Source: Desulfatitalea tepidiphila
GTDB lineage: Bacteria > Desulfobacterota > Desulfobacteria > Desulfobacterales > Desulfosarcinaceae
Assembly: GCF_001293685.1 (NCBI RefSeq)
Contig: NZ_BCAG01000003.1
Location: 1,488,001 to 1,552,000 of the forward strand
DNA: 64,000 nt
Direction: 5' to 3'
This document shows positions 11,984 to 28,535 of this stretch, piece after piece (position 1 is the stretch's first letter; each line of letters begins with the position of its first letter). A model generated the notes under the pieces. The model ran no database searches. It saw nothing but the letters and a program-made list of their open reading frames with translations, and had not been told where the DNA came from. The translations under genes and the position numbers were made by a program.

Positions 11984-12044
11984 GTACTATTTTCACTTGA
12001 GTTGAAATTATCTGGGGTTTGTGGTTTTGAGGAGACTAAAATAT

Positions 12045-12521: not shown

Positions 12522-13595
12522 GTGCAAAACGGGGCAGTTTGTCCAAATGCCGGCGCAGAGACCGGCAAATGCCATTGCGATGATTTGGCTCATGGCGGAC
12601 CTGCGGAGCGAATCAGTTTTCACGGCGTTGTTGGGAAAAGCCGGTCCATGCAGAACGTGTTCAAACTGATCGAACGAGTGGCCGATAGCGACAGCACCAT
12701 CTTGATCAATGGTGAAACCGGTACCGGCAAGGGGTTGGTGGCCAAGGCCATTCACGCCAGCTCCTATCGAAAAGACAAACCGTTTGTCGCCATCAACTGC
12801 GGCGCCATACCGGAAAACCTGCTGGAAAGCGAACTGTTCGGGCACGTGAAAGGGGCCTTCACCGGCGCCACTTCCGCCAAGGTCGGGAAATTTGAAGTGG
12901 CCAACGGCGGCACCATCTTTCTGGACGAGATCGGGGACATGAGTCCCGATCTGCAGGTCAAGGTGCTCAAGGTTCTTGAAGAGCGTGAATTCGAACCGGT
13001 CGGCGGGTGCAAGACGGTGAAGGTGGACGTGCGCATCATCGCCGCCACCCATCGCGACCTGGAAGAGGCGGTTCAAAAGAACAATTTCCGCGAAGATCTG
13101 TTTTACCGATTGTATGTCATCCCCATCCAGCTGCCCTCCCTGAAAGATCGCCAGATGGATATCCCCCTGCTGACCAATTTTTTCATGAGCAAGCTCAACC
13201 GCGAAAAGAGAACGCAGGTAGAGAACATCACGCCGCGCGCCATGGAAGCGCTCATGCGACATGCCTGGCCGGGCAATGTTCGGGAATTGGCCAACATGCT
13301 CGAACGCCTGGTTGTGTTGAAGGGCGAGGGCACTCTGGACGTTGAAGACCTGCCCACAAAAATCAAGCCATCAGGAGAGTTCCAGCCGATCCCGGCAATG
13401 GACATGGCGATGCCGGACCTATGCCGGGAAGGGATTTGTCTGAACACTGCGGTCAGTGAATTCGAAAAAAACCTGATTTATCAATCGCTGGAGCAGACCG
13501 ACTGGGTGAAGAACAAGGCGGCCAAACTCCTGCAGGTCAAGCGAACCACCCTGGTCGAGAAGATAAAGCGCTACGACTTGCAAAAGTGCGCTTAA
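12522..13595 (+). CDS. Sigma-54-dependent activator without receiver domain (FlrA/FleQ-like master regulator candidate)
   Basis: 357 residues from a GTG with a GGAGGG site 5 bases upstream. The AAA+ core begins at ~residue 32 (FHGVVGKSRSMQ). It has Walker A GETGTGKG, the sigma-54 loop GAFTGA, Walker B GTIFLDEIGD and FREDLFYRL. The last ~45 residues are a Fis-type helix-turn-helix (AAKLLQVKRTTLVEKIKRY). The first 30 residues form no receiver or PAS domain, so activity is not set by phosphorylation on this chain. Its position at the head of the flagellar cluster, with three sigma-54 promoters downstream, points to flagellar control. A FlrC-like assignment is also possible. Confidence 0.82.
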   Translation: MQNGAVCPNAGAETGKCHCDDLAHGGPAERISFHGVVGKSRSMQNVFKLIERVADSDSTILINGETGTGKGLVAKAIHASSYRKDKPFVAINCGAIPENLLESELFGHVKGAFTGATSAKVGKFEVANGGTIFLDEIGDMSPDLQVKVLKVLEEREFEPVGGCKTVKVDVRIIAATHRDLEEAVQKNNFREDLFYRLYVIPIQLPSLKDRQMDIPLLTNFFMSKLNREKRTQVENITPRAMEALMRHAWPGNVRELANMLERLVVLKGEGTLDVEDLPTKIKPSGEFQPIPAMDMAMPDLCREGICLNTAVSEFEKNLIYQSLEQTDWVKNKAAKLLQVKRTTLVEKIKRYDLQKCA

Positions 13596-13653
13596 GCCGG
13601 ATCGAACCGGATCGAACTGACGCATCGACAACGAAAGGCGGGCCGCATTTAGC

Positions 13654-14361
13654 ATGGAAAAGGCAGACCCTCGTAAGGGCTCGGTTGGGCCGTGTGTGTT
13701 TCGCACCTTATCAACTCCAACTCGAGAGGCTTCGTTTGACAGTGCTGCTACCGGAGATGGGGACGGATCCGTTTGCTTCAGGCCCTCCTGTTGGTCTGAC
13801 AGCCGCAATGAGGGTAAAGCCGACCCACTCAATGGAAAAGACCTGGCGGTGCACCTCGAGGAGGTGCAGCAGCTGGCATTCCAACGCGGCTTGGGCAGCG
13901 GCCGGGAAGAAGCCTGCCGCATGGCCCAGGCTTCTGTTTTGCCACACCTCAAATCCCTGATCCAGAGCTTGAGCGGCTTAATCCACCAGATCAAAAACGC
14001 AGAATCTCGTACCAGCGCCAACGCGGTCTCTCTGGCGGCCGACATTGTTGAACGAGTGATCGGGGTCTCATCCGGTTCGTATGATTTCCAGGGATTGAAA
14101 AACGATTTAGGTCAAGCCGTAGTGAAAGCCAATCAGTTTCGAATTCGATTGAACCAGGAGGATTGGACCTACCTGAAAGAGTTGTTGGAAAACGAACGAC
14201 TTGCCTGGCCCGAGCATCCCTGTGTCGTTTTTCAGGCAGATGCCGAGATCGAAAAAGGGGATTTTCGGATTCAGGACACGGGCGACGAGCGCGAAACAAT
14301 CGATAGGCATGTCGCCCGGCACTTCGCTACTTCACAGCGTCCAAACACCAGTCCAGCATGA
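13654..14361 (+). CDS. FliH-like stator protein paralog (stand-alone)
   Basis: 235 residues. Residues ~70-225 follow the FliH C-terminal pattern: a helix A-A-D-I-V-E-R-V-I-G, then FRIRLNQEDWTYLKELL, then VVFQADAEIEKGDFRI, which parallels the fused FliH segment at 19877 (IKANPEDCRPIQNFL ... INADPSISRGGCMI). In that second motif GGC is replaced by GDF. Residues 1-60 are low in recognisable structure and the start is uncertain; no strong ribosome site precedes 13654. It sits between two sigma-54 activators. FliH normally dimerises on FliI; since the other FliH copy here is fused to FliI, this one could supply a second FliH chain. A divergent cargo adaptor is the alternative. Confidence 0.58.
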   Translation: MEKADPRKGSVGPCVFRTLSTPTREASFDSAATGDGDGSVCFRPSCWSDSRNEGKADPLNGKDLAVHLEEVQQLAFQRGLGSGREEACRMAQASVLPHLKSLIQSLSGLIHQIKNAESRTSANAVSLAADIVERVIGVSSGSYDFQGLKNDLGQAVVKANQFRIRLNQEDWTYLKELLENERLAWPEHPCVVFQADAEIEKGDFRIQDTGDERETIDRHVARHFATSQRPNTSPA

Positions 14362-14549
14362 CCCAAGCACTTCACCGACCCATCAGCACCAACCTGTGTT
14401 GCGTCAACAAAGTGACAACCTTACAAGCCACCTCACTTGTTAAAGGTCGACATTCTTCGATTTTGACCCATTCTTTATCCCGTTTTGCAGCTGGCATGTT
14501 TATTGCCAAAATCCATTAATCGTCGAATCAGAAAATTATTGACGGCTAT

Positions 14550-14663
14550 GTAAAAAGTCGGGAATTCGCTCTTCCCGTCATCCCGGCGGAAGCCGGGATC
14601 CATTATTTTCAATAGGTTCTGGATGCCGGCGTTCGCCGGCATGACGCCTCTGCGACTTTTTAC
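14550..14663. repeat. 114-bp MITE-like palindromic element
   Basis: Ends are perfect 11-bp inverted repeats (GTAAAAAGTCG ... CGACTTTTTAC). Inside are two hairpin halves, CCCGGCGGAAGCCGGG and GCCGGCGTTCGCCGGC. ATTATTGACG occurs directly repeated just outside (14535-14544 and 14673-14682), as expected for a duplicated target. It occupies most of the 414-bp gap 14362-14775, which holds no gene. Confidence 0.65.
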
Positions 14664-14775
14664 GGTTTTATCATTATTGACGCCTTAAAATGGATGGCTA
14701 CGTCAAAAGCTGTTGTCGGCCTTCTTGCCGTGTCGTCAAAATGGGTTTGAATCAAATTGATATCAGCCAACGATC

Positions 14776-15750
<975 letters not shown>

Positions 15751-15882
15751 CCGCAGGTAGGCAAGCTTTGCCGCACCTGTCGGCTGAATGACACCGGCAG
15801 TCCTGTCGACGAATCTCTTCAAAGTTAAAATAGTCATAACAAATCAATCAGATAAGCCCATGCGGGAAGATGCCTTTGCGAT

Positions 15883-15898
15883 TGGTACATAAATTGCT
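15883..15898 (+). promoter_or_regulatory. Sigma-54 promoter of the flgB operon
   Basis: TGGTACATAAATTGCT: GG and GC separated by 10 bases, with TTGCT intact and TGGTAC for TGGCAC. It is 34 bp before flgB, leaving a leader of about 22 bases with GGAGG. Confidence 0.8.
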
Positions 15899-15931
15899 CA
15901 AGCTTGAAAAACGATTGGAGGCACATCAAAT

Positions 15932-16354
15932 ATGGACACCCATACGCTTTTCGACAAGACCATTGACCTGGCTCAGCGAGCGCTCGACTTACGTTCCCGG
16001 CGTCATGAAGTGCTCCTTTCAAACATCGCCAACGCCGACACACCAGGCTACAAGGCGTTTGACCTGATGGTGGAAGAGGCGCTCTCCAGACAAACGCCCA
16101 AACAGGGGCAGCTTCAGATGCGTCGAACAGATGAAGGCCATCTTCCGGCCGGCGGTCCTGACTCGTCAACAGCGGTTCCCCGCAAAGTGGCGCTTACTCC
16201 CCAAGTGACCTTGAGGGGCGATGGCAATACCGTGGACATGGATCGCGAGATGTCGGCCCTTGCGGCCAATCAACTCCAATACCGGATGTCCACGCAGTTG
16301 ATCGCAAAGAAATTCCAGTCGCTACACAATATCATCAAGGGGGATAGGCAGTAG
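15932..16354 (+). CDS. flgB: Proximal rod protein FlgB
   Basis: 140 residues, normal for FlgB. The rod signature near residue 30 (LLSNIANADTPGYKAFD) and the C-terminal coiled-coil region with AANQLQYRMSTQLIAKKF are present. It forms the innermost rod ring that joins the MS ring and export gate. First gene of the flgBC-fliEFG operon, directly after a sigma-54 promoter; flgC starts 3 bases after its stop. Confidence 0.95.
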   Translation: MDTHTLFDKTIDLAQRALDLRSRRHEVLLSNIANADTPGYKAFDLMVEEALSRQTPKQGQLQMRRTDEGHLPAGGPDSSTAVPRKVALTPQVTLRGDGNTVDMDREMSALAANQLQYRMSTQLIAKKFQSLHNIIKGDRQ

Positions 16355-16356
16355 AT

Positions 16357-16809
16357 ATGAGTTTTCTGGATGCCCTTCAAACCAGTGCCAGCGGCCTTAG
16401 CGCCCAGCGCCTGCGAATGAATCTCATCTCCAGCAACCTGGCCAATGTCAATACCACGCGCACCGAAGACGGTGGTCCTTATCGAAGAAAAGACGCCGTT
16501 TTTCGGGCCACAGAATCGCAGGCCCCGTTCGGGGATCAATTGAACCGCAAGTTGACAGGAAATCGGCTGGAACAGGCCAATGTCGGTGTGGAGGTGACAG
16601 AGATCAGGGATGACTATCGCCCGCCGATCCTCAAGTTCGACCCCAATCATCCGGACGCCGATGAGCAGGGCTATATATCCTTGCCCAATATCAATGTGGT
16701 CGAGGAGATGGTGAATATGATTTCGGCCACCCGCAGTTATGAGGCCAACGTGACGGCGATTAAAGCCTCCAAGGACATGGCTTCGGACGCCATGGATATA
16801 GGAAGGTAA
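16357..16809 (+). CDS. flgC: Proximal rod protein FlgC
   Basis: 150 residues. It has SGLSAQRLRMNLISSNLANVNTT near the start and the closing VEEMVNMISATRSYEANV helix seen in axial proteins. Second component of the periplasmic rod. It lies between flgB and fliE with gaps of only 2-3 bases, so it is translated from the same message. Confidence 0.95.
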   Translation: MSFLDALQTSASGLSAQRLRMNLISSNLANVNTTRTEDGGPYRRKDAVFRATESQAPFGDQLNRKLTGNRLEQANVGVEVTEIRDDYRPPILKFDPNHPDADEQGYISLPNINVVEEMVNMISATRSYEANVTAIKASKDMASDAMDIGR

Positions 16810-16812
16810 TCG

Positions 16813-17121
16813 ATGAGCTTGATAAATTCCATACATACCAGCGTACTGCCGCCATCCCAAAACGGCATCGCATCGGCGGCCCTGGAGAAGAATGATTCAA
16901 AGGCGACCTTCGGTCAATGGCTCGAGCAATCCCTTGGCGAAGTGAACCAACTCCAACAGGCATCCAACGATGCCATGCAAAAACTGGTCGCCGGCGAGAC
17001 TCAGGATATCCACGGCACGATGATCGCCATGCAGAAATCGAGTATCGCCATGGAGTTGACCGTTGAAGTGCGCAACAAGATCATCAGCGCTTATGAAGAG
17101 ATCAAGCGCATGCAATTCTAA
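16813..17121 (+). CDS. fliE: MS ring-rod junction protein FliE
   Basis: 102 residues, standard for FliE. The second half (MQKLVAGETQDIHGTMIAMQ ... ELTVEVRNKIISAYEEI) matches the family: a helix with an I-H-x-x-M-I-A motif followed by the R-N-K-x-x-x-A-Y-E-E-I-x-R-M end. It joins the MS ring to the rod and is among the first exported proteins. A GGAAGG ribosome site overlaps the flgC end. Confidence 0.94.
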   Translation: MSLINSIHTSVLPPSQNGIASAALEKNDSKATFGQWLEQSLGEVNQLQQASNDAMQKLVAGETQDIHGTMIAMQKSSIAMELTVEVRNKIISAYEEIKRMQF

Positions 17122-17220
17122 ATTGTACATGGTCTTCCAGCCGAAAAACGGCCGGAAAAAAATCCCCGATGGCGGATCGCTAACTGAACGCATCAACGCT
17201 ACGACAAACGAGACGGTACC

Positions 17221-18822
17221 ATGCCCAACTCCATTGCTGAAATTCTCAAGCAGTTAAGAGCCATCCTGCAAACCATGTCCGCCGGTAAGATGATGGCCCT
17301 GTTTCTTCTCGTCGCCACCACCATCGCCGGCCTGGTGGTCCTGATCAGTTGGTCGGGACGCCCGGATTATGTTCCCCTCTACAGCCATATGTCGCCCGAA
17401 GATGCCGGCGAAGTCGTTTCCCTCCTGCGGGAAAAGAAGATCGCATATCAACTGTCCCATGACGGCGGCACGATTCAAGTGCCCCGCGAAAATATCTATG
17501 ATTTGCGTCTTGACCTGGCCTCCCAGGGGCTTCCCCGTGGTGGAACGGGATTCGAGGTGTTCGACAATACCAAGTTGGGCGTCACGGAATTTGTTCAGAA
17601 CATCAACTACCAGCGGGCCCTGCAGGGGGAACTGAGCCGGACCATCAACGGCTTGTCGGAAGTGGAAAGTTCGCGGGTTCATATCGTGATGCCCGATCGC
17701 TCCCTTTTCATTGAAGAGGAAGAACCGGCCAGCGCATCGGTGATTCTAAAGCTGCGCCATGGCCGATATCTCAGCGAAGATCAGATTCAAGGCATCGTTC
17801 ACCTGGTCTCTTCGAGCGTGCCCCGGTTGCAGCCCGGACAGGTCACCATCGTAGACCAGAATGGCAAGATGCTGGCCGGTTTGGAAGACGAACCCTCCAT
17901 GGCCAAAGTCAGCGCCGATCACTTGGAGCTTCAACAACGCAAGGAACGGTCGCTCGAGAAGCGGGTCCTGACCATGCTGGAAAAAGTGTTAGGCAAGGAC
18001 AAAGCGATCGTGCGGGTGGCATGCGATCTGGATTTTATTCAACAGGAACGAACCGAGGAAATGTACCTGCCCGATAACCAGGTGGTGCGCAGCGAACAGA
18101 TATCCAGTGAGGCATCCTCCAAGGCAGATGCCGGCGCCATCGGCGTTCCCGGACTAGCCAGCAACATCACCCAGTCGCAGAATGAACCCGGCCAAACAGT
18201 GCGGAAATCGGGATTCGAAAAAAATGATGCCACCCGCAACTACGAAATCGGCAAGACGGTCAGCCGCAAAGTGATGCCGGTGGGAGATCTGCAGCGACTT
18301 TCCGTGGCCGTTGTCGTCGATGGCACCTACAAGACGGTGACGGTCGGCAAGGGCGACAAACAGCGCGAGGAGAGTCAGTATGTGCCGCGCACGGCCGAAG
18401 AGATGGCCGCATTTGAAAACATCATCAAAAGTGCGGTCAATTTCGATGCGAATCGGGGAGACAAAATCGAGGTGGCCAATATCGCTTTCAACAGCGAACC
18501 GCTGATGGCCGATACGGCGGATACTGCGGCTCGATGGCTCGATGGCGTCCGGGAGTACAGCGGCATTTTCAAATATCTGATCGTGGGCATTTTCGTGCTG
18601 ATTACCTTCCTTTACGTGATTCGTCCCCTGATCAATTGGTTGACGGAAACCGCCTGGGAAGACGTCGATCTGCTCGAGCATCTGCCGCGAACGCTTTCAG
18701 AAATCGAAGGGCAGTATGCCAGCCAGGGCGGCATCGACTATGTTCAACAAGCGGCCAACATGATCAAATCCAACCAGAACGATACCGGCCGGTTGATGCA
18801 GCAGTGGTTGAAAGAAACATAG
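17221..18822 (+). CDS. fliF: Flagellar MS-ring protein FliF
   Basis: 533 residues, typical. Two membrane segments flank the periplasmic part: residues ~20-42 (MMALFLLVATTIAGLVVLI) and ~448-468 (YLIVGIFVLITFLYVI). The ring-building motifs LYSHMSPEDAGEVV and GGTGFEVFDNTKLGVTEF are clear. The cytosolic tail that binds FliG is at the C-terminus (EDVDLLEHLPRTLSEIE). It forms the inner-membrane base ring on which the C ring and export gate assemble. 99 bp after fliE. Confidence 0.95.
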   Translation: MPNSIAEILKQLRAILQTMSAGKMMALFLLVATTIAGLVVLISWSGRPDYVPLYSHMSPEDAGEVVSLLREKKIAYQLSHDGGTIQVPRENIYDLRLDLASQGLPRGGTGFEVFDNTKLGVTEFVQNINYQRALQGELSRTINGLSEVESSRVHIVMPDRSLFIEEEEPASASVILKLRHGRYLSEDQIQGIVHLVSSSVPRLQPGQVTIVDQNGKMLAGLEDEPSMAKVSADHLELQQRKERSLEKRVLTMLEKVLGKDKAIVRVACDLDFIQQERTEEMYLPDNQVVRSEQISSEASSKADAGAIGVPGLASNITQSQNEPGQTVRKSGFEKNDATRNYEIGKTVSRKVMPVGDLQRLSVAVVVDGTYKTVTVGKGDKQREESQYVPRTAEEMAAFENIIKSAVNFDANRGDKIEVANIAFNSEPLMADTADTAARWLDGVREYSGIFKYLIVGIFVLITFLYVIRPLINWLTETAWEDVDLLEHLPRTLSEIEGQYASQGGIDYVQQAANMIKSNQNDTGRLMQQWLKET

Positions 18823-18905
18823 GCCATTAATAGGTTTTTATAACACCCGGACAGCGCGACGGCACAGGACATTTTCTCGAACGACACGAGCGAAAACAGT
18901 CACAC

Positions 18906-19877
18906 ATGGACCCCAAACAACTCAAAGGTTCTGTAAAAGTGGCCATCTTGACTATGGCGATCGGTCGCGAGGCGGCCGAGGCGGTCGTCGGCCGGTTTTC
19001 CCAAGATGAACGGGCCTTGATTTCGAGGCTGCAATCACGCTTGGGTTCGGTGCCCCAATCCTTGATCAATCACGTGGCCCAGGAGTTCATCGAAAAGTCG
19101 GGATTACCCCTACAACTCGACAATACGGCCGGCGGCGATAAAGGAGATGAAGGGGGCGACAAAGAGAGTAAAAAAATTCCCAAGACGACACTGGAGGCCG
19201 TTCAGAGCATCGACCCCAACCAGTTGATTCAACTGATCAAGGACGAACACCCCCAGACCATCGCATTGATCCTGGTTCACCTGGACCCCTCCGTGGCAAG
19301 CGCGATCCTGGGCCGTTTGCCGGAAGAGATCATTCCCGATGTCGCATACCGTATCGCCAATTTAAACAATGTGTTGGCCGGTATGGTCAAAGAGGTGGAC
19401 AAGGTTTTCGAGGAGATTCTGAAAAACAAGGATCATGTCTCCACGCAGGAGGCGGGCGGTGTCGGTCGGCTGGCAGAGATTCTCAACCAGATCGACGGGA
19501 CCATCGTAGAACAGATCATCGAAGAGATAGAGGAAAACGACCCTGATTTGGCCGAAGAGATCAAACAGAAGATGTTCGTCTTCGAAGACGTTGTCCTGGT
19601 AGACGACAAGGGACTGCAAAAAGTGCTGCGCAGTGTGGAGTCCCAGGAACTGGCGGTGGCATTGAAAGCGGCTTCGGAAGATGTCAAAAATAAGATTTAC
19701 CGCAACATGTCCCAGCGTGCGGCGGAAATCCTCAAAGAGGAGATGGAGGTCCTCGGATCGGTGAGGATGAAAGACGTCACCGACGCCCAACAGAAGATCA
19801 CCCGCATCATCCAGGATATGGAGCGCAAGGGCGAGTTGATCATCACCGGTCGCGGTGGGGAAGAGTTCGTCGGATAA
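18906..19877 (+). CDS. fliG: Flagellar motor switch protein FliG
   Basis: 323 residues. The middle domain has DEHPQTIALILVHLDPSVA (EHPQTIA motif) and the C-terminal torque helix region has MFVFEDVVLVDDKGLQ and charged residues expected to contact MotA. A lysine/glutamate-rich linker (residues ~75-93) joins the N-terminal FliF-binding domain, which is less conserved than usual. It links the MS ring to FliM/FliN and receives torque. Its TAA shares an A with the ATG of the next gene, so translation is coupled to the FliH-FliI fusion. Confidence 0.95.
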   Translation: MDPKQLKGSVKVAILTMAIGREAAEAVVGRFSQDERALISRLQSRLGSVPQSLINHVAQEFIEKSGLPLQLDNTAGGDKGDEGGDKESKKIPKTTLEAVQSIDPNQLIQLIKDEHPQTIALILVHLDPSVASAILGRLPEEIIPDVAYRIANLNNVLAGMVKEVDKVFEEILKNKDHVSTQEAGGVGRLAEILNQIDGTIVEQIIEEIEENDPDLAEEIKQKMFVFEDVVLVDDKGLQKVLRSVESQELAVALKAASEDVKNKIYRNMSQRAAEILKEEMEVLGSVRMKDVTDAQQKITRIIQDMERKGELIITGRGGEEFVG

Positions 19878-21853
19878 TGGCACGAAAGGACCCTATGGAC
19901 CTTTATTGTTTTCCAAAAATAAAGGGGGCTGCCGACGGTAACGGTGAAGACCTCGATGGGCGACATGAAAGCGGCGAAAATGCCGTTGCCCAGAAAATCG
20001 CCGCCGTAGAAGCGCAGGCATTCGAAGATGGCTTCAAAAAGGGATGCAGTCAATCGCTTGGCCCTGAAAAAGAGAAGCTCAGCCATTTGAAGGAGATGCT
20101 CGATGCGGCCGCCGCTTCTATCCATGAGCGAACGGCAGCCATCAGGGACAATTGTGAAGACGATATCGTACGGGTTGCACTCGCGTTGGCCGGACACGTG
20201 ATTGAGCATGAGATTGAACTGCAGCCTGAATTGACCGCAAGCATTCTGGGACGGTCCCTTGAAATGGGAATCGGCCAGGAAAAGCTGAAAATCAAGGCCA
20301 ATCCCGAGGACTGCCGTCCTATCCAAAACTTTTTAAAGGCAAAGGTGCCGGATCCCGAAACCTATGGACGCATTCAGATCAACGCAGATCCCTCGATCAG
20401 CAGAGGAGGGTGCATGATCGAAACCGATTTTGGTGTGGTCGATGCCCGTATCGAGCAACAATTGGAGACTATTGCCGAGCATTTGCGTCCGGTGCTCTCA
20501 GAGAGCAAGGCCCTCTTGCGTCGGTCCAATGACGGCCATTCAAGCGTGGAAAGCTACCGCCAACGCATCAAAAGTGCGGTGCCTGTCAAAACATATGGCC
20601 ATGTCACCCAGGTAGTTGGATTGGTCGTAGAGGCCAATGGGCCGGCCGTCAAGTTGGGGGCGGTCTGCGATATCCAGTCCAGTCCAAATGATCCGCCCGT
20701 GTCAGCGGAAGTGCTGGGGTTCAGGGATCGGACCGTCTTATTGATGCCGTTGGAGGAAATAAGGAGCATCGGTCCGGGCAGCAAGGTGGTGGCCCGAGGC
20801 CAAAAGGCCGCCATTGCCGTCGGGCCAGAGCTTTTGGGCCGCATTATCGACGGCCTGGGAAATCCCATCGATGGAAAAGGGGCGGTGCGCACCGATGTCG
20901 ATTATCCGATCTACGCCCAACCGATCAATCCGCTGCTGCGCCAAAGAATTAAAAATCCCCTGGATCTGGGTGTTCGCGCCATCAACGGCCTGCTGACGGT
21001 GGGATGCGGCCAGCGCATGGGCATTTTTGCCGGTTCGGGGGTCGGCAAGAGCGTGCTCATGGGCATGATTGCCCGGGAAAGCAGCGCCGACGTCAACGTG
21101 ATCGCTCTGATCGGTGAACGCGGCCGCGAATTGAACGATTTCATCGAGAAGGAGCTGGGGGAAGAGGGGCTTGGTAAATCCGTGGTGGTCGTTGCCACCT
21201 CCGACCACCTGCCATTGGTACGCGTCCGCGGCGCCTTCGTGGCCACGGCCATCGCCGAGTATTTTCGTGATCAAGGCAAGACGGTCAACCTGATGATGGA
21301 TTCCCTGACCCGCTTCGCCATGGCCCAGAGAGAGATCGGGCTGGCCCTGGGGGAACCGCCGACGACCAAGGGCTACACGCCATCGGTGTTCACCATGCTG
21401 CCCAAACTGCTCGAACGCGCCGGCACTTCGGATCATGAGGGAAGTATCACCGGTCTCTACACGGTGCTGGTGGAAGGCGACGACATGAACGAACCCATTG
21501 CCGATGCGGCGCGCTCCATCCTGGACGGCCATATCGTTTTGAGCCGGGAACTGGCCCACCAGAACCACTACCCGGCCATCGATGTGTTGAAAAGCATCAG
21601 CCGGGTGATGGAGGATATCGCGTCGCTTCAGCACAAGCATCATGCCAAGCGCCTCAAGGAGTTGCTGGCGACCTATCGTAAATCCGAAGATTTGATCAAT
21701 ATCGGCGCTTACGTGAGCGGCAGTAATCCGTCCATCGATCGGGCCATCGCAAAGATCGGTCAGATCAATGCGTACTTGCGGCAGGATATCGGCGAAAGCG
21801 TGGGTTTGGAAGAGAGCCTGCAGCAACTGGAACATCTGATCAACAGCAAGTGA
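19877..21853 (+). CDS. fliI: FliH-FliI fusion: export ATPase with its regulator in one chain
   Basis: 658 residues, against ~440 for FliI and ~220 for FliH. Residues ~25-205 are FliH-like: a charged helical part, an A-L-A-L-A-G-H-V-I helix, and INADPSISRGGCMIETDFG with VDARIEQQLETI. After a ~30-residue linker, FliI starts near 235 (YGHVTQVVGLVVEANGP). Walker A is GSGVGKS (~386-392), then IALIGERGRELNDF and LMMDSLTRFAMAQREIG. No in-frame stop and no internal start with a ribosome site separates the halves, so this is one protein. FliH normally binds FliI two to one and holds it at the gate; fusion would fix at least one FliH per ATPase. fliJ follows 10 bases later. Confidence 0.93.
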   Translation: MARKDPMDLYCFPKIKGAADGNGEDLDGRHESGENAVAQKIAAVEAQAFEDGFKKGCSQSLGPEKEKLSHLKEMLDAAAASIHERTAAIRDNCEDDIVRVALALAGHVIEHEIELQPELTASILGRSLEMGIGQEKLKIKANPEDCRPIQNFLKAKVPDPETYGRIQINADPSISRGGCMIETDFGVVDARIEQQLETIAEHLRPVLSESKALLRRSNDGHSSVESYRQRIKSAVPVKTYGHVTQVVGLVVEANGPAVKLGAVCDIQSSPNDPPVSAEVLGFRDRTVLLMPLEEIRSIGPGSKVVARGQKAAIAVGPELLGRIIDGLGNPIDGKGAVRTDVDYPIYAQPINPLLRQRIKNPLDLGVRAINGLLTVGCGQRMGIFAGSGVGKSVLMGMIARESSADVNVIALIGERGRELNDFIEKELGEEGLGKSVVVVATSDHLPLVRVRGAFVATAIAEYFRDQGKTVNLMMDSLTRFAMAQREIGLALGEPPTTKGYTPSVFTMLPKLLERAGTSDHEGSITGLYTVLVEGDDMNEPIADAARSILDGHIVLSRELAHQNHYPAIDVLKSISRVMEDIASLQHKHHAKRLKELLATYRKSEDLINIGAYVSGSNPSIDRAIAKIGQINAYLRQDIGESVGLEESLQQLEHLINSK

Positions 21854-21863
21854 TGAGGCCGAC

Positions 21864-22304
21864 ATGCCCTACACCTTCAAATTGGAAGCACTGCGTCAGT
21901 TCCGTGAATTTGAAGAAGAACGGGTGCAACGCGAATTTTCCCAGGCCCAGCGGATTCTCGAGGCAGCTGCATCGAAGCTGGCGGAGCAAATCGCTGTACG
22001 GGACAAAACCGAAACCGAGTTTGCCGCGCATCAAGATTCGGGGACTGCCTCGCAATGTGCCATGTATAGGGGCTTTTTGCAGCGATTGGCCGAAGAGATC
22101 GAACTGCTTAATCAACGATTGCGGGTCGCCGAAAGAGATTGTGAAAAAAAACGACAGGCGCTTTTGGCTGCCGTTAAAAATCGAAAGACCCTGGACCGAT
22201 TGAAGGAGAAGGACGAGCAGGCCTATCGCCATAAGCAGGACCAGGAGGAAGGCAAGTTCATCGACGAAATGGCCATCAATCGATTCCAGCTCAACCGTGG
22301 ATAA
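21864..22304 (+). CDS. fliJ: Flagellar export chaperone FliJ
   Basis: 146 residues, almost wholly predicted helical with heptad patterning (FKLEALRQFREFEEERVQREF ..., given in part). It starts MPYTFKLEALRQ, typical of FliJ, which is the central stalk that inserts into the FliI hexamer and touches FlhA. Located right after the fused ATPase gene and before fliK, the usual position. Confidence 0.88.
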   Translation: MPYTFKLEALRQFREFEEERVQREFSQAQRILEAAASKLAEQIAVRDKTETEFAAHQDSGTASQCAMYRGFLQRLAEEIELLNQRLRVAERDCEKKRQALLAAVKNRKTLDRLKEKDEQAYRHKQDQEEGKFIDEMAINRFQLNRG

Positions 22305-22316
22305 AGGAAGTCAACC

Positions 22317-23876
22317 ATGCAGTTTGCGATGAAACTATTTGAAATTGCGCCACAAGGGCTCGCCAACGGTGCAGGCACTCAAAAAGTGGCGGTGAAAATG
22401 CCGGCCCAAGGCGCCTGCGGAGGCACCGACGTCGAAGCGCGTTTTGCTGACATCATGGCGGCACTTTTCGGCATGCCTTCGGAGCAGTTGGAAGACTCGC
22501 TGGCCCACTTGGAAACGATTTCCGCTGCGGATGCCGCCGAGGAGCGGGTGCCGGTCATCGACCTGACACAGCTGATGGGCTCAAGGGTCGCATCTTTCGC
22601 CGGTGAAGACGATACGACCCGCGTCGATCCGGAAGGTATCATGGATGCCTCCGAAATTTCGCGGCGCCTCGACGAGTGGATAGCCGCGGGCGTGGTGTCG
22701 GAGGAGAGCGCCAATGGGTTGGCTCCCTTGCTGGAAGGCGTTGGTGTTTCAACCGAGGTCGATGGCCTGGATCTCACCGCAAAGACGGTGATCGAGCAAC
22801 TCCTCGACACGGCGCAACAACCAGTCGATGGGGCGATGCGGTCTGACGATTCGTCCAAATTGGCCCAACCGGGCACCGGGACATTGGCCCAGCTTTTGGC
22901 CGCAGTTCAGCGCCGCGACAAGAATGCTTTGCAGATGCCCACGGAACGCGCTGAACAGGTTCAGGCCGACACGGCTTTAGGCGCTTCCGCGGATCTCGGC
23001 GACGAGGCCGTCGAGGCCGATGCTTTTCCGCCGATGATCGATGAAGGCGCTCCGAAAAAGAATGGTATGGCCGGTCCGGCCGCAAAATCGGTCGATTCGC
23101 AAGCATCCGGAAATTTTGGCGAAATGGTATCTTCGGCTGCCAGACAAAAACCCGAATCTATGGAAAAGGCACCAACCGAGACCAAACTGAGCGAAGTCTC
23201 GTTGAAAGAGCAGATTCGGCCTCAACATGATCATCAGGCCGGCCCACAGCTCCCGAACAGTGCGTCCCAGGGGAATAGCACGGTTCAACAACAGGCGGCT
23301 CCGCAGGAGATGGTCGCCGCCAACATCTCCACCGCTACACCCGCACCTGAATCTAAATTCGACAGCGCGGTTCATGCCAGTCATCAAACCCCTGAGGCGC
23401 CGAGCGACGCCAAGGAGATGCAGAGCGATGTCATCCGCCAGATCGTTCAGCGCATGACATTGCGTTCGGACGGTCGCCAGTCTCAGATGCAGATCCGGCT
23501 CAAACCGGAATTTCTAGGCAATCTGCGCATGGATGTCATTACCGAAAACCGTCTCGTCCTGGTCCGCATGACCGCCGAGAGCCACGCGGTCAAGGAGATG
23601 ATCGAACAGAACATCGGTTTGCTCAAGAATGAGCTGCAGCAGCACGGTCTTCAGATTCAAAAAATCGATGTGACGGTCTCCACGGACAACACCCCATGGC
23701 AGAGCGGGCAGCAGCAGGCGGCTTTCGATCAAGCTCGACAGCGCAATTGGCAGGGACATAACGGACGTCGTGCCGGCAGACAAGGGGTGGAGCAGGGCGG
23801 CGTCAACGCCGTCGACAGCGCCCAACCCACGACAAAGGCGCATGCAAAAACCAGCGAAGTCGATTTCTTCGCATAG
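22317..23876 (+). CDS. fliK: Flagellar hook-length control protein FliK
   Basis: 519 residues. The first ~370 are Ala/Pro/Gln-rich and low in complexity, as in the ruler part of FliK. The C-terminal ~110 residues hold the conserved domain: MQIRLKPEFLGNLRMDV, LVRMTAESHAVKEMIEQN, LLKNELQQHGLQI. It measures hook length and switches FlhB specificity through this end. The last ~35 residues are Gln/Gly-rich. Position between fliJ and flgD is conventional. Confidence 0.9.
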   Translation: MQFAMKLFEIAPQGLANGAGTQKVAVKMPAQGACGGTDVEARFADIMAALFGMPSEQLEDSLAHLETISAADAAEERVPVIDLTQLMGSRVASFAGEDDTTRVDPEGIMDASEISRRLDEWIAAGVVSEESANGLAPLLEGVGVSTEVDGLDLTAKTVIEQLLDTAQQPVDGAMRSDDSSKLAQPGTGTLAQLLAAVQRRDKNALQMPTERAEQVQADTALGASADLGDEAVEADAFPPMIDEGAPKKNGMAGPAAKSVDSQASGNFGEMVSSAARQKPESMEKAPTETKLSEVSLKEQIRPQHDHQAGPQLPNSASQGNSTVQQQAAPQEMVAANISTATPAPESKFDSAVHASHQTPEAPSDAKEMQSDVIRQIVQRMTLRSDGRQSQMQIRLKPEFLGNLRMDVITENRLVLVRMTAESHAVKEMIEQNIGLLKNELQQHGLQIQKIDVTVSTDNTPWQSGQQQAAFDQARQRNWQGHNGRRAGRQGVEQGGVNAVDSAQPTTKAHAKTSEVDFFA

Positions 23877-23901
23877 CGAATAGATCCGGGAGGATTGCTC
23901 G

Positions 23902-24582
23902 ATGACTATTTATGGACTGGAAAACGTCTCGTCGGCGGGTGCCCAGACCACGACGACTTCCAAAAACGATATAATGGGCAAGGATGACTTCCTGCGCCTG
24001 CTGGTGGCCCAGCTCGAGGCCCAGGATCCGCTAAATCCCATGGAGAGCACAGATTTCACCGCCCAATTGGCCCAGTTCAGCTCGTTGGAACAACTTCAGA
24101 ACGTCAATACCGCACTGGGCAACATCGGCACCTCCCAATCGGTGATGACCAACAGTCAGGCCGTTGGTTTTATCGGGAAAACCATAACGGCACTGGGCGA
24201 CACGGTGGAGGTTCAATCCGGTCAAAGCCAGGATGTCCAATTTACGCTCAATGAGCCAGCGGCCGGACTCTATGTCCGGCTCTACGACACATCCGGCAAC
24301 TTCATCCGCCAAATAGAGGGCGGGGCAATGGAGGCCGGAGAAAACCAGGTGGAATGGGATGGTTTGGACTATCTGGGAGGAAGGGTCCCGGACGGCGCGT
24401 ATACTTACGAGGTCGCTGCCATCGATGAGCTCGGCAACTCGGTCCGCGCCACCACCTTTGCATCCGGCATCGTCACCGGTGTCAGCTATAAAGACGGCGT
24501 TGCCTATTTGCAATGCGGCAGCCGGGAGATTCCCATGGGTAGTGTGATCGACGTGACATCGCCAGAGAATCCGGAAAGCTAA
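23902..24582 (+). CDS. flgD: Hook-cap protein FlgD
   Basis: 226 residues, usual length. The N-terminus has the diagnostic GKDDFLRLLVAQLEAQDPLNP and the scaffold segment FTAQLAQFSSLEQLQNV. The rest is a FlgD-type Ig/tudor-like part with FIRQIEGGAMEAGENQVEWDG. It caps the growing hook and is later lost. GGGAGG lies before the start. Confidence 0.94.
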   Translation: MTIYGLENVSSAGAQTTTTSKNDIMGKDDFLRLLVAQLEAQDPLNPMESTDFTAQLAQFSSLEQLQNVNTALGNIGTSQSVMTNSQAVGFIGKTITALGDTVEVQSGQSQDVQFTLNEPAAGLYVRLYDTSGNFIRQIEGGAMEAGENQVEWDGLDYLGGRVPDGAYTYEVAAIDELGNSVRATTFASGIVTGVSYKDGVAYLQCGSREIPMGSVIDVTSPENPES

Positions 24583-24676
24583 AGATAGAGAAAAGCATCG
24601 GGGAGCGCTATCGCAGCTTCAACAATAGACGATTTGTACGAGAAAAAATCAACTCACATAAAGAGGGAGTATCATC

Positions 24677-25876
24677 ATGATCGGATCGCTTTATTCAGGT
24701 ATTTCGGGCTTGAAAGCCAACACCAGCGCCATGGCGGTCATCGGCGACAACATCGCCAACGTCAATACAACCGGTTTCAAGACGTCACGGGTTGAGTTCT
24801 CCAACATCTTCAACGCGACTTTAGGCCAGAGCAAAACACAGATTGGACGCGGCGTTACCATGAGCGGCGTCTCCTCCAACTGGAACTCGGGCACCATGGA
24901 GACGACCAACACGGCCACCGACCTGGCCCTCAACGGTCCGGGCATGTTCATCGTGCGGAATACGGCCAACAACGGTCAATACTACACCCGGGCTGGGCAA
25001 TTCGAATTCAATGCCGACAACCTGCTGGTCAACGCCGATGGACTGGAGGTTCAAGGGTATGCCATCGATGCCGCGGGAAACACCGGTGCCTTGGGCACCA
25101 TCACTTTACCCAGCGGTATCAGCACGCCTCAACCCACCACAGAGCTCACCATGGGCATCAATTTAGATGCCGGCGCCGCCGTGGGAGATACCTTCGACAC
25201 CACCATTTCGGTCTACGACTCGCTGGGCAACTCAGTGGAGCTCAATGTCAATTTCACCAACACAGCTGCGGGTGCCTGGACCTGCGCGATTACCCCTTCA
25301 GTGGGCGCGGCAACGATCACGCCTGCCAATTTCACCTTTGATGTCAATGGTGAATTAACGGCACCGGCCACCGACCCTGTCATCGCGGTCACAGGGCTGG
25401 CCGGCGATGATTTGTCAATCGATTGGCTTTTGTCGGGCGCGAGCGCCAGTCACGGTGCGGTCACAGGCTATGCCGGTACTTCGGTCAAGACCTCCCAGAC
25501 CCAGGATGGCTACCCGAGCGGCATGCTGCAGGGAATTTCCGTGGATGAAGACGGCATTTTCACGGCCCTCTACTCCAACGGCACCATGTCGCCCTTCGCC
25601 CAGATCGCCGTGGCCGATTTCGCTAGTTATGCCGGGCTTTCCAAGCAGGGTTCCAACCTGTTCACTTCTTCCCTGGCTTCCGGTCAGCCGGTCATATCGG
25701 TACCCAACACCGCCGGCGTAGGGGCCATTGCACCGAGCAGCCTGGAGATGTCCAACGTGGACCTGGCCCAGGAGTTCGTCTCCCTGATTACCACGCAGCG
25801 TGCCTTTCAGGCCAACTCCAAGGTGATCACCACCAGCGACGAGGTGCTTTCCGAATTGATCAATATAAAACGATAG
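24677..25876 (+). CDS. flgE: Flagellar hook protein FlgE
   Basis: 399 residues. The N-terminal axial motif is LYSGISGLKANTSAMAVIGD with NIANVNTTGFKTSRVEF; the C-terminus has SNVDLAQEFVSLITTQRAFQANSKVITTSDEV, diagnostic of hook and distal rod proteins. The middle D2 part (VGDTFDTTISVYDSLGN) is the FlgE-specific insertion. It forms the hook. Last gene of the block begun at flgB; 94 bp after flgD with a strong AGAGGGAG site. Confidence 0.95.
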   Translation: MIGSLYSGISGLKANTSAMAVIGDNIANVNTTGFKTSRVEFSNIFNATLGQSKTQIGRGVTMSGVSSNWNSGTMETTNTATDLALNGPGMFIVRNTANNGQYYTRAGQFEFNADNLLVNADGLEVQGYAIDAAGNTGALGTITLPSGISTPQPTTELTMGINLDAGAAVGDTFDTTISVYDSLGNSVELNVNFTNTAAGAWTCAITPSVGAATITPANFTFDVNGELTAPATDPVIAVTGLAGDDLSIDWLLSGASASHGAVTGYAGTSVKTSQTQDGYPSGMLQGISVDEDGIFTALYSNGTMSPFAQIAVADFASYAGLSKQGSNLFTSSLASGQPVISVPNTAGVGAIAPSSLEMSNVDLAQEFVSLITTQRAFQANSKVITTSDEVLSELINIKR

Positions 25877-25906
25877 TAAGCCGGCTTCGGCGGTACTAAA
25901 AAAAAG

Positions 25907-25940
25907 GGTAAAGTGTGAAGTGTAAAGTCTTAAGTGAAGG
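25907..25940. repeat. A/T-rich heptamer repeat, copy 1
   Basis: Variants of TAAAGTG/TTAAGTG in tandem; the end AAGTGTAAAGTCTTAAGTG is nearly identical to 31971-31989. It lies just after flgE in the 448-bp gap 25877-26324. That gap also contains a 9-bp stem (GGGTGCCCC ... GGGGCACCC, 26024-26056), a possible terminator for the flgE message, and the motA promoter, but no gene. Confidence 0.45.
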
Positions 25941-26023
25941 AATTCTGTCGATTAGACGGATATTTACGTTGATCCTATAGGGTTCGATACTTTAAACTCT
26001 ATCTGTAAATGATGTGATTTTGC

Positions 26024-26056
26024 GGGTGCCCCTGGTTATTGCAGATGGGGGCACCC
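26024..26056 (+). terminator. Possible terminator after flgE
   Basis: Nine-base stem GGGTGCCCC / GGGGCACCC with a 15-base loop, 148 bp past flgE. No strong U-tract follows directly, so this may be a processing or pause hairpin instead. Confidence 0.35.
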
Positions 26057-26255
26057 CTTCTCAACCCCCCTGTCAAAGCCTTGACTCGCAGTGATGAAAT
26101 TTGACGAGAAGCTTTCTATCCAACTGCGATGGTCGTTGGCGGTTTTTTTATCATCTCTCTTTGCCTCCCCGATAAATTACGAAAAGAACAAATATTTTAG
26201 ATAGATATTGGCATACTCGTCATAGGCGGGCACTGTTCGCCAACGCCCTGCCTTG

Positions 26256-26271
26256 TGGCACACTCCATGCT
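26256..26271 (+). promoter_or_regulatory. Sigma-54 promoter of the motA-fliLMNOPQR-flh operon
   Basis: TGGCACACTCCATGCT: complete TGGCAC, 10 bases between GG and GC, and TGCT. It is 54 bp before the motA TTG start. Confidence 0.8.
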
Positions 26272-26324
26272 AACCTCTGAAAACTGGTTGGAGATTGGTC
26301 GTATCAGCACCCCTGGAGGAAGCG

Positions 26325-27095
26325 TTGGATTTAGCCACATTACTCGGAATTGTCGTCGCCGTCGGCCTGGTTTTCTTCTCCATTGTCATGGACGGATCCG
26401 CCACGTGGTTCATCAACTATCCTTCCCTGATGATCGTCCTGGGCGGGACAATGGGTGCGACACTGATCAACTATCCGATTTCCGACGTGGTCAGCATGTT
26501 CAGGGTCACAAAAAACGCCTTTCGTCAGAGAACTCCCAATCCGCTGGGCATTATCCCGGTCATGGTCGATTTTGCGAAGCGCGCCAGGAAGGAAGGGGTC
26601 TTGGCCTTCGAGAAGTACATCAGGGAGATCGACGATCCGTTCTTGTCAAAGGCCATGCAGATGGCGGTCGATGGACTGGGCAACGATGCCATCGAAGAGG
26701 TGCTTAACACGGAGATCTTGTGGCTGGAAGAGCGCCATCGCCTGGGAGCCGAGATCTACGCCACCATGGGCACATTCGCACCGGCGGTGGGGATGCTGGG
26801 AACGATCATCGGACTGGTCCAGATGCTGATGCAGATGAAAGACCCCTCCGCCATCGGCGCCCCCATGGCCGTGGCCTTGTTGACCACTTTCTACGGTACG
26901 TTGCTGGCCAACTTTCTCTTCTTGCCGATCTCGGGCAAGCTCAAGGTGCGCAGCCGCCAGGAGATCCTGGCCAAACAGATGGTCGTGCAGGGTATCCTCG
27001 CCATTCAGGCCGGAGACAACCATCGTATCGTATCCGAAAAGCTCAAGGCTTTCTTGTCGCCCACGGCGCGCCTGGCCGAAGAGAAGGGGGTTTGA
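26325..27095 (+). CDS. motA: Flagellar stator protein MotA (first stator locus)
   Basis: 256 residues if translated from the TTG at 26325, chosen because GGAGGA is 4 bases upstream and the product then starts MDLATLLGIVVAVGL like other MotA/PomA proteins; an ATG 30 bases upstream lacks this. Four membrane segments are visible. The loop between segments 2 and 3 has ARKEGVLAFEKYI and LEERHRLGAEIY for FliG contact. The region PAVGMLGTIIGLVQML with a later proline completes the ion path. First gene after a sigma-54 promoter and followed by two motB genes. Confidence 0.92.
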   Translation: MDLATLLGIVVAVGLVFFSIVMDGSATWFINYPSLMIVLGGTMGATLINYPISDVVSMFRVTKNAFRQRTPNPLGIIPVMVDFAKRARKEGVLAFEKYIREIDDPFLSKAMQMAVDGLGNDAIEEVLNTEILWLEERHRLGAEIYATMGTFAPAVGMLGTIIGLVQMLMQMKDPSAIGAPMAVALLTTFYGTLLANFLFLPISGKLKVRSRQEILAKQMVVQGILAIQAGDNHRIVSEKLKAFLSPTARLAEEKGV

Positions 27096-27099
27096 CCGC

Positions 27100-27816
27100 A
27101 TGGCGGCTCGCTTTCCAAAAGCAGGTCTTCAACACCCGGCGGCCGGGCAAGCCCGGGAGGGCTGGCAGATCGTCTATACCGGATTTATCCTGATCATGCT
27201 CTGCTTCTTTATCATGCTCACCTCCTTTGCTTCCCTGGACCCATCGCGCATCACCCGATTCGTTAATTCTTTCAACCACGCGGTCAACGTGCTGAGCGGC
27301 GGACAGAACATCGAAGAAGGAGACGCCATCGTCGATGAGCAGGTCAACCTGCTGGCCAGAGAGGACCTGCGCGCCAAGCTGTTTGAGAGCGTGCATCAGG
27401 CCGCCCGCGATGAGGGCATGACGCATATCGAAATCTCGCAAGTGCCCACAGGTGTCGTGCTCCGCCTGAAAGAGAAGCTGTTGTTCGATAGCGGCGAGGC
27501 GGTTCTGACGGAAGAGGCCAGGGAGCAGTTGGATCCGGTCGGTCGAATCATTCAGCGCATCGGCGCTCCTGTGGAGATTCAGGGGCATACGGACGACCGG
27601 CCGATTCGCGGCGGTCGATTCCCCTCCAACTGGGAACTGTCCACCGCGCGCGCCATCAGCGTGCTTCGCTTTTTAAGTGCCTCGGACGGGGTGGAGAGCC
27701 GGTTGCTGTCCGCGGTGGGCTATGCGGAATTCAACCCCCTGGCGGACAATTCCACGGACGAGGGCCGCGCCACCAACCGGCGGGTGGATGTCGTGTTCCA
27801 AATGGAAATCGAATAG
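27100..27816 (+). CDS. MotB-like protein lacking the channel aspartate
   Basis: 238 residues. The C-terminal OmpA-like peptidoglycan-binding domain is intact (LLFDSGEAVLTEEA, IQGHTDDRPIRGG, ARAISVLRFL, NRRVDVVF). The single membrane segment is W22-QIVYT-G28-FILIMLCFFIML. In ordinary MotB, and in the other two here, the equivalent of residue 28 is aspartate (W-x4-F-x-D). Glycine there would abolish proton carrying in a homodimer. The gene starts 4 bases after motA and the next motB starts 8 bases after it, so all three are coexpressed. A mixed MotB1/MotB2 dimer or a structural stator anchor is inferred. Confidence 0.82.
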   Translation: MAARFPKAGLQHPAAGQAREGWQIVYTGFILIMLCFFIMLTSFASLDPSRITRFVNSFNHAVNVLSGGQNIEEGDAIVDEQVNLLAREDLRAKLFESVHQAARDEGMTHIEISQVPTGVVLRLKEKLLFDSGEAVLTEEAREQLDPVGRIIQRIGAPVEIQGHTDDRPIRGGRFPSNWELSTARAISVLRFLSASDGVESRLLSAVGYAEFNPLADNSTDEGRATNRRVDVVFQMEIE

Positions 27817-27824
27817 GGGCCGAG

Positions 27825-28535
27825 ATGATCCGACGACGGACATATGCACATATCCTGGAACAGGCCCCGGCCCACAATCGTTGGCTGACCACCTTCAACG
27901 ATCTGATCACTTTGTTGATGGTCTTCTTTGTGCTGCTATTCTCCATGGGACATATGGATGCCGAGCGTTTCAGCTCGTTTCAAAATGGCATGCAGAGCGC
28001 CATGGGAATATTGAATGCCGGACGCTTCGGCGATGAGGGGCCGATGGGCGATGCGGCCTCATCGTTCCAGGCCGAATCCGAAACGGCCGGGCAGTTCCTC
28101 GAGGGGTTGCCCGATGCCACCGGTCTGGAGGCGGAGTATACCCCCAAGGGTATCAAACTCACCCTTAATGACGACCTGCTCTTTGATTCGGGTAGCGCCG
28201 ACATCACCGGCAACGGCGTCGAGCTGCTCGAAACGGTTGGCCGGGTCATCAAGCCCGCACGCCGACACGTTCGGGTGGAGGGCCACACGGACGATCGGCC
28301 CATTTTCAACAACCGCTACCCATCCAATTGGGAATTGTCGGCGGCCAGGGCGGTCAATGTGGTCAAACTTTTGATCGATAGCACCGGTATCGATCCGACC
28401 CTGCTGTCGGCCGCCGGATACGGATCATTCAAACCCAAGACCGCCAATGACACCGAGGCGGGGCGTGCCGCGAACCGGCGCGTGGAAATCATACTGGGCC
28501 GGGAAGCACTCGAAGGCTCCGAAACAAAAGAATAA
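27825..28535 (+). CDS. motB: Flagellar stator protein MotB with channel aspartate
   Basis: 236 residues. The membrane segment R-W-LTTFN-D26-LITLLMVFFVLLFSM carries the proton-binding aspartate. The OmpA-like domain follows (LLFDSGSADITGNG, VEGHTDDRPIFNN, ARAVNVVKLL, NRRVEIIL). It binds peptidoglycan and, with MotA, forms the torque unit. Immediately downstream of the aspartate-less paralog; the two share the same architecture and probably arose by duplication. fliL starts 33 bases after it. Confidence 0.92.
   Translation: MIRRRTYAHILEQAPAHNRWLTTFNDLITLLMVFFVLLFSMGHMDAERFSSFQNGMQSAMGILNAGRFGDEGPMGDAASSFQAESETAGQFLEGLPDATGLEAEYTPKGIKLTLNDDLLFDSGSADITGNGVELLETVGRVIKPARRHVRVEGHTDDRPIFNNRYPSNWELSAARAVNVVKLLIDSTGIDPTLLSAAGYGSFKPKTANDTEAGRAANRRVEIILGREALEGSETKE

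What the first reader, a model, noticed from the sequence alone, without database searches (positions are those of the whole stretch)
19877..21853. In-frame FliH-FliI fusion
One continuous 658-codon frame holds a full FliH C-terminal domain (ADPSISRGGCMIETDFG) and a full FliI with both Walker motifs, joined by a ~30-residue linker. FliH and FliI are separate proteins in the systems I know, with two FliH per FliI. A fixed fusion changes the stoichiometry and the cycling of FliI between cytosol and gate.
Basis: partly seen in the sequence, partly recalled or inferred. Interest (0 to 1): 0.75.

Follow-up and report, generated by a model that had tools for sequence, protein, structure and literature searches.

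The report
FliH-FliI fusion plus second FliH
In one small group of sulfate-reducer-type bacteria, the motor protein that powers flagellum building is permanently joined to its anchor protein, and a second, specialised anchor gene lies nearby, so the normal two-anchor arrangement may be kept in a new way.

Summary
In detail: 19877-21853 (+) is one open 658-codon frame with a complete FliH and FliI. It is not a base error: the stop-free junction recurs in all 10 genomes of the clade whose junction is assembled, and the fusion has one origin (100/100). No stop-free fusion outside the clade appears in the rows listed for 291 genomes of the order or 394 of the phylum; both lists were cut. The interpretation needs changing. 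G016, a split relative, has it too, so it probably came first. It keeps an N-terminal motif that the fused FliH lost, and lost the C-terminal signature that the fused FliH keeps. Best reading: a heterodimeric stalk of FliH-FliI plus FliH2 that keeps two FliH per FliI. The heterodimer is inferred, not shown. My literature searches gave no description of this (listings, partly cut).

The parts
19877..21853 (+). fliH-fliI fusion gene (658 aa; stop included in the end coordinate)
   Evidence: Open frame; Pfam FliH 71-199 and NCBIfam FliI 241-654; same continuous frame in 9 further genomes, one of them (G003) cut by a contig end inside FliI
19901..19924 (+). N-terminal motif 1 of FliH in the fusion (YCFPKI, within residues 9-16); the extreme N-terminus binds FliN in Salmonella
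   Evidence: FP kept in 12 of 12 main FliH proteins of FliH2-bearing genomes examined; role by analogy of position with Salmonella Trp-7/Trp-10 (PMC13233425, passage)
19976..20524 (+). FliH coiled-coil helix and C-terminal domain (residues about 34-216), with the signature SRGGCMIETDFGVVDAR
   Evidence: AlphaFold2 elements; Pfam FliH; signature in 10 of 10 fused proteins
20525..20545 (+). junction loop (residues about 217-223)
   Evidence: Non-helical stretch of lower pLDDT between helices 192-216 and 224-233; no stop in any of 10 fused genomes
20546..21850 (+). FliI, essentially full length, including the N-terminal helix that binds FliH in Salmonella
   Evidence: VIA-align of the model to 5b0o chain D: model 215-657 onto chain 2-455, Z 50.4, rmsd 3.2, 442 aligned; NCBIfam
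13654..14361 (+). fliH2: free-standing divergent FliH paralogue (235 aa)
   Evidence: Pfam FliH 8.3e-08, 32.7 bits over the 24.1 cut-off; best fold match Salmonella FliH 5b0o, weak by itself; dN/dS about 0.2-0.3; directly downstream of the s54A regulator in 10 of 10 fused genomes
12522..13595 (+). sigma-54 activator upstream of fliH2 (s54A)
   Evidence: Pfam Sigma54_activat 1.5e-74; syntenic anchor
14776..15750 (+). sigma-54 activator downstream of fliH2 (s54B; lacks the receiver domain of the G005 relative)
   Evidence: Pfam; G005 relative has Response_reg; no convincing receiver remnant found in the window
18906..19877 (+). fliG, immediately upstream; its stop codon TAA shares one base with the fusion's ATG
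   Evidence: ORF list and sequence; name by sequence reading; used as reference protein
21864..22304 (+). fliJ, next gene downstream, still separate
   Evidence: ORF list; name by sequence reading and position; same order

Best explanation
This is a natural FliH-FliI fusion protein of the flagellar export ATPase complex, working together with a second, free FliH (FliH2). SHOWN: the fused frame is real, conserved and of single origin in the trees made here; FliH2 is present in every fused genome examined, shows purifying selection in two close pairs, and has motif losses complementary to those of the fused FliH. INFERRED: FliH2 and the FliH part of the fusion pair through their long helices into an asymmetric heterodimer. 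The fused FliH keeps the standard C-terminal domain, which in cis holds FliI's first helix. FliH2 supplies the second stalk strand and a second N-terminal docking motif. The complex is then FliHI:FliH2 1:1, with two FliH chains and one FliI as in Salmonella, but with the two roles of the homodimer split between two genes. Proposed order: fliH duplicated, the copies diverged, then loss of the fliH stop codon in a tightly packed operon locked one copy onto FliI.
For: (1) Fused genomes one clade, 100/100; FliH2-bearing genomes one clade, 93/99. (2) FliH2 follows s54A in 10 of 10 fused genomes; of 8 split genomes of the family with s54A and s54B both seen in place, 7 lack it and 1 (G016) has it. 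(3) Motif split: of 31 split FliH proteins from other loci that have an FP motif (of 100 in the set), 30 have an aromatic residue further on; of 12 main FliH proteins in FliH2-bearing genomes 3 have one (Fisher p 3.6e-6, but one clade, so not independent). FliH2 has F-x-P at the second-motif place in 11 of 12, G002 excepted. (4) The GGC-x-IET signature is in 10 of 10 fused FliH and 0 of 12 FliH2. (5) FliH2 dN/dS 0.27 and 0.21 in two close pairs. (6) In Salmonella the two FliH C-terminal domains of one dimer have completely different conformations and partners (PMC9114704, passages), a natural basis for such a split. (7) The position of Salmonella FliI Arg-30, in the patch bound by the second FliH domain, is His (8) or Leu (1) in the 9 fused proteins shown and Arg/Lys in 14 of 14 distinct split ones shown (mapping, residues).
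Against: No direct evidence that FliH2 binds the fusion; only single chains could be modelled. FliH2 evolves fast and its model is weak (pLDDT 77.8, pTM 0.57; Foldseek E 9e-3; Z 8.3 with rmsd 7.1). FliH2 lies between regulators, not next to fliI. FliH2 is not tied to the fusion: G016 has it with separate fliH and fliI. The 'FliH2 first' order rests on that one visible split junction; in G018 the contig ends inside fliH. G002 FliH2 lacks about 35 C-terminal residues, lacks the second motif, and its contig has no s54B. 69 of 100 split FliH in the set have no FP motif at all, so the two-motif pattern is a trait of part of the order only. The motif roles are by analogy.
Confidence: 0.55

Rival explanations
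1. The fusion homodimerises through its own FliH part, giving two FliI per stalk; FliH2 does something else, such as regulation or binding another partner.
For: The fused FliH keeps the parts of a homodimerising FliH: long helix, C-terminal domain. FliH2 lies between two sigma-54 regulators.
Against: Does not explain the joint presence of FliH2 in 10 of 10 fused genomes or the complementary motif losses.
Confidence: 0.2
2. The fused frame is read, but FliI is also made separately, by internal translation start or by cleavage, so free FliI exists.
For: In the window AGGAGG lies 4 bases before an internal ATG at codon 180 (20414-20416). At the same codon G001 and G006 have GTG with a four-base match (AAGG) to a ribosome-binding site 7-8 bases before.
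Against: The start is not conserved: the nearest relative G007 (94% identical protein) has ACG there and six others CTG or CTC; no internal ATG/GTG/TTG with a binding-site match stands at one position in all 10 fused genomes. The A/G-rich run encodes the conserved RGG of FliH. Cleavage cannot be tested from sequence.
Confidence: 0.12
3. FliH2 binds the fusion only in some states (for example as an exchangeable spoke or carrier subunit), alongside fused homodimers.
For: Borrelia motors are reported with 21-24 FliH spokes around a FliI hexamer (PMC6248999, passages), so FliH need not be fixed at two per FliI.
Against: Nothing in the sequences tests it.
Confidence: 0.12
4. Sequencing or assembly error joining two genes.
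For: In 14 of 78 unfused loci fliH and fliI stand in one frame with a single stop codon between them, so one miscalled codon would be enough.
Against: Same open junction in 10 genomes of different species, with diverged sequence and one in-frame 7-residue insertion.
Confidence: 0.01

Closest known systems
Salmonella FliH2-FliI heterotrimer (PDB 5b0o; review PMC9114704, passages read)
   Same: Same two proteins; same FliI fold and the same FliH-binding first helix of FliI present
   Different: There separate chains and a FliH homodimer; here one FliH is covalently joined to FliI and a second, divergent FliH gene is present
Mycobacterial ATP synthase peripheral stalk, fused b-delta with b' (PMC8617483, passages read)
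   Same: A fused stalk subunit stands beside a second, different stalk subunit (b') in a rotary ATPase
   Different: There b and delta are fused and none of the catalytic ring; here the stalk protein is fused to the ATPase subunit itself. Analogy only
[quoted passage not shown]
   Same: A natural fusion of two flagellar export proteins that are usually separate
   Different: Export-gate membrane proteins, not the ATPase complex; the passages read mention no extra paralogue
V-ATPase peripheral stalk E/G heterodimer
   Same: Heterodimeric stalk (recalled); V-ATPase stalk chains appear among weak fold matches of FliH2
   Different: Matches are weak (Z under 5); the heterodimer here is inferred; no fusion there (recalled)

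Membership tests
FliI / SctN export ATPase (fused C-terminal part) | Match over the curated NCBIfam FliI score | tested here: met
   TIGR03497 658.6 bits against a cut-off of 629.8, residues 241-654
FliI / SctN export ATPase (fused C-terminal part) | Fold of FliI over full length, first helix included | tested here: met
   5b0o_D, Z 50.4, rmsd 3.2, 442 aligned, model 215-657
FliI / SctN export ATPase (fused C-terminal part) | ATP hydrolysis and hexamer formation | not testable with these tools
   P-loop GSGVGKS intact in all 9 full-length fused proteins aligned; activity needs an assay
FliH (fused N-terminal part) | Match over the curated Pfam FliH score, with the C-terminal GGC-IET signature | tested here: met
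   PF02108 77.8 bits against 24.1; signature in 10 of 10 fused proteins
FliH (fused N-terminal part) | Separate polypeptide from FliI | tested here: not met
   One frame, no stop, in 10 of 10 genomes with the junction assembled. So: a FliH-homologous domain, not a canonical FliH protein
FliH (free paralogue, FliH2) | Match over the curated Pfam FliH score | tested here: met
   32.7 bits against 24.1, residues 100-207
FliH (free paralogue, FliH2) | C-terminal GGC-x-IET signature found in split FliH of relatives | tested here: not met
   Absent in 12 of 12 FliH2 proteins. Therefore called a FliH-like paralogue
FliH (free paralogue, FliH2) | Dimerises with FliH and binds FliI | not testable with these tools
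   Only single-chain models were possible

The most novel reading that the evidence does not exclude
In this clade the flagellar export stalk is an obligate heterodimer of FliHI and FliH2: a gene duplication split the two conformationally different roles of the FliH homodimer between two proteins, after which one became covalently fixed to the ATPase. It would be a natural, genetically separated version of the asymmetric FliH dimer seen in the Salmonella crystal structure.
Probability: 0.5. Interest if true: 0.75.

Novelty: new variant of a known kind. Interest (0 to 1): 0.6.

Why it matters
The Salmonella FliH homodimer binds one FliI with two C-terminal domains in different conformations (PMC9114704); because both come from one gene, the two roles are hard to mutate one by one. 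If nature has put them on two genes here, each role can be tested alone. A covalent FliH-FliI link also gives a native test of whether FliI must ever leave FliH during export.

Tried and rejected
Sequencing error: rejected by relatives. Internal start at codon 180: looked strong in the window alone, judged unlikely because not conserved, although 3 of 10 fused genomes have ATG or GTG there with some binding-site match. Other fusions: the long frame of L162 and the shorter extensions in L154, L161 and L031 are not FliH (names read by eye). G213, G137 and G117 have fliH in another frame, and G097 has it in the same frame but cut off by a stop. A first alignment for structure prediction (A1) put FliH rows onto FliI and was not used. 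My first idea that FliH2 occurs only with the fusion was wrong: G016 has FliH2 with separate genes, and G018 has FliH2 with its junction cut off by the contig end. In the group table I labelled G018 'split'; this is not shown, and I left G018 out of the count of fusion changes. FliH2 was sought only in 60 relatives, with the window protein and with Pfam FliH; both missed the G016 copy, and no FliH2 profile was run over the order, so copies elsewhere may have been missed. A residue-level test of partner coevolution was not tried: too few pairs. No genome search was centred outside the window's phylum (one search failed), so absence elsewhere is untested apart from the 78 unfused loci of mixed labels. 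No Rfam match at 9000-26500. The fold search of the fusion covered in effect only residues 233-658.

Literature: searches that gave no description of this fusion or of a FliH2 partner are 20 of 45 papers listed; 0 papers; 0 papers; 15 of 256 listed; 8 of 98 listed; I saw listings only, open-licence PMC papers only. Papers of which I saw passages: PMC9114704, PMC6248999, PMC2674601, PMC13233425, PMC8617483, PMC7064499. None was read whole.

Full report
THE FRAME. 19877-21853 (+) is one open frame of 658 codons. Its ATG shares one base with the fliG stop, and fliJ follows at 21864 (both named by reading). Pfam finds FliH at 71-199 and the ATPase domains behind it; NCBIfam FliI over its curated cut-off. 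An AlphaFold2 model on 38 sequences (mean pLDDT 87.8, pTM 0.78) shows a low-confidence start (1-33), a long helix 34-115, the FliH C-terminal domain to a helix ending at 216, a loop 217-223, then the first FliI helix 224-233 and FliI. Against PDB 5b0o the model aligns from 215 to 657 onto FliI residues 2-455 (Z 50.4, rmsd 3.2, 442 aligned). So both partners are essentially complete and the true joint is about seven residues.

IT IS REAL AND CLADE-SPECIFIC. The window's family holds 30 genomes here; it includes Desulfosarcina, judging from contig L107, which has the contig length of G025, so it is probably Desulfosarcinaceae. Ten genomes carry the fusion: nine of the eleven of the window's genus, plus G011 of a second genus. 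G003 is cut by a contig end inside FliI but its junction is open. G004 is cut inside fliH and G008 had no match. Thirteen further family genomes had a FliI match without fusion; the remaining five gave no FliI match at the threshold used. Nine full-length fused proteins align end to end; their identity to the window's is 65-94%, and 48% over the part seen in G003. No junction has a stop. Among 291 genomes of the order, 151 had a FliI match at E 1e-60; no stop-free FliH-FliI frame was listed outside this clade (the list was cut), and the two longest other stop-free frames (G213, G097), plus two shorter ones, were checked and are not fusions. Among 394 genomes of the phylum, 241 had a FliH match; in the rows listed (also cut) the only FliH in a frame longer than 355 aa is the window's. 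In 20 of those 78 fliH and fliI share a frame, in 14 with a single stop codon between; the way these loci were ranked may favour such cases. The step to fusion is thus small, yet in this sample it was fixed once. G011 also has a second, separate fliH and fliI.

THE MISSED PARTNER. A FliH profile search of the own genome gave two hits: the fusion and a frame at 13654-14361. That 235-aa protein passes Pfam's FliH cut-off, has much the same order of helices and strands as the fused FliH but a shorter end, and its best fold match is Salmonella FliH in 5b0o (Z 8.3, rmsd 7.1, 128 aligned; Foldseek E 9e-3); for a long helical protein this alone would be weak. In all ten fused genomes it lies directly downstream of the s54A regulator; in nine of ten s54B follows, while in G002 s54B is on another contig. 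Of eight split genomes of the family in which s54A and s54B are both seen in place, seven lack it (G014, G015, G022, G023, G026, G027, G028) and one, G016, has it; the 746-base gap of G014, the largest measured, holds no such frame. G018, of the same genus as G016, also has it, but its fliH runs off the contig. The FliH2 proteins form one group (SH-aLRT 92, quick tree of 49 short sequences). On a tree of eight concatenated flagellar proteins from 21 genomes the fused genomes are one clade (100/100) and the FliH2-bearing genomes are one clade (93/99). Most likely order: FliH2 first, fusion second. A later split in G016 is possible but needs an extra step. Between close pairs FliH2 has dN/dS 0.27 (G000/G007) and 0.21 (G005/G010), so it is maintained; the 36-codon junction region gives 0.44 and 0.14 on few sites.

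COMPLEMENTARY LOSSES. Many split FliH proteins of the order carry two short aromatic motifs in the N-terminal tail: one around F-P (often F-x-x-H-Y-F-P-x-I) and, some 20-30 residues on, a second one with Phe. Of 100 split FliH proteins in the set 31 have an FP motif, and 30 of these have an aromatic residue further on; of 12 main FliH proteins in FliH2-bearing genomes all 12 have FP and 3 have any later aromatic residue, by eye not in the usual setting. FliH2 has F-x-P at the second-motif place in 11 of 12 (FxPLF in 6); G002 is the exception. The first motif is whole in FliH2 of G011, G016 and G018, and has no intact FP in the nine FliH2 proteins of the window's genus. At the other end the GGC-x-IET signature is in 10 of 10 fused FliH and in 0 of 12 FliH2. 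These are changes in one clade, so the Fisher value overstates the evidence. In Salmonella the extreme N-terminus of FliH, Trp-7 and Trp-10 included, docks on FliN (PMC13233425, passage); the match of our motifs to that site is by position only.

HOW IT PROBABLY WORKS. [quoted passage not shown] the two differ completely in conformation (PMC9114704, passages). In the fusion, the domain with the standard signature is tethered seven residues from FliI's first helix, so it is well placed to hold it in cis. The patch is changed: Arg-30 corresponds to residue 242, which is His (8) or Leu (1) in the 9 fused proteins shown and Arg or Lys in 14 distinct split ones; Arg-76 and Arg-93 were not compared. 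That fits a changed second partner, FliH2. I put 0.55 on the heterodimer. A fused homodimer, separate production of FliI, and a looser role of FliH2 share most of the rest. Cycling between cytosol and gate is not excluded by the fusion, since Salmonella FliI is described as cycling in complex with FliH.

INTERNAL START. AGGAGG stands four bases before an in-frame ATG at codon 180 in the window. G007 has ACG there, G001 and G006 GTG with a short AAGG match upstream, and the other six CTG or CTC; no start with a binding-site match is shared by all ten. The purine run is largely forced by the RGG of the FliH signature.

NOVELTY. I found no report of a natural FliH-FliI fusion or of a FliH2 partner in five searches of open-licence papers (listings only, three of them cut). 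Subscription papers are not covered. Natural fusions of other export proteins are known (FliR-FlhB), and a fused stalk subunit beside a different one is known in mycobacterial ATP synthase. Hence: a new variant of a known kind.

Noticed in passing
window 14776-15750 (+): The flagellar sigma-54 activator s54B lacks the N-terminal receiver domain that the G005 copy has (Pfam Response_reg); a search with that domain found no convincing remnant in the window (one chance-level match, E 2.4) and none in G007.
   Followed up: partly
window 26295-28535 (+) and 48533-50070 (-): One MotA followed by two MotB-like proteins in tandem, and a second MotA/MotB pair on the other strand in the same flagellar region (Pfam).
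   Followed up: partly
L192 (G024) and L191 (G053): fliH and fliI in the same frame with a single TGA between them, one codon away from a fusion.
   Followed up: partly
phylum genomes G356, G377, G397, G443, G509, G538, G579, G599, G607, G619, G630, G677: Two FliH-family matches in one genome; second flagellar systems or further free FliH paralogues, not examined.
   Followed up: no
L182 (G002 contig C42) 5158-5754: FliH2 frame ends about 35 residues early compared with the others; real shortening or frameshift not decided.
   Followed up: no
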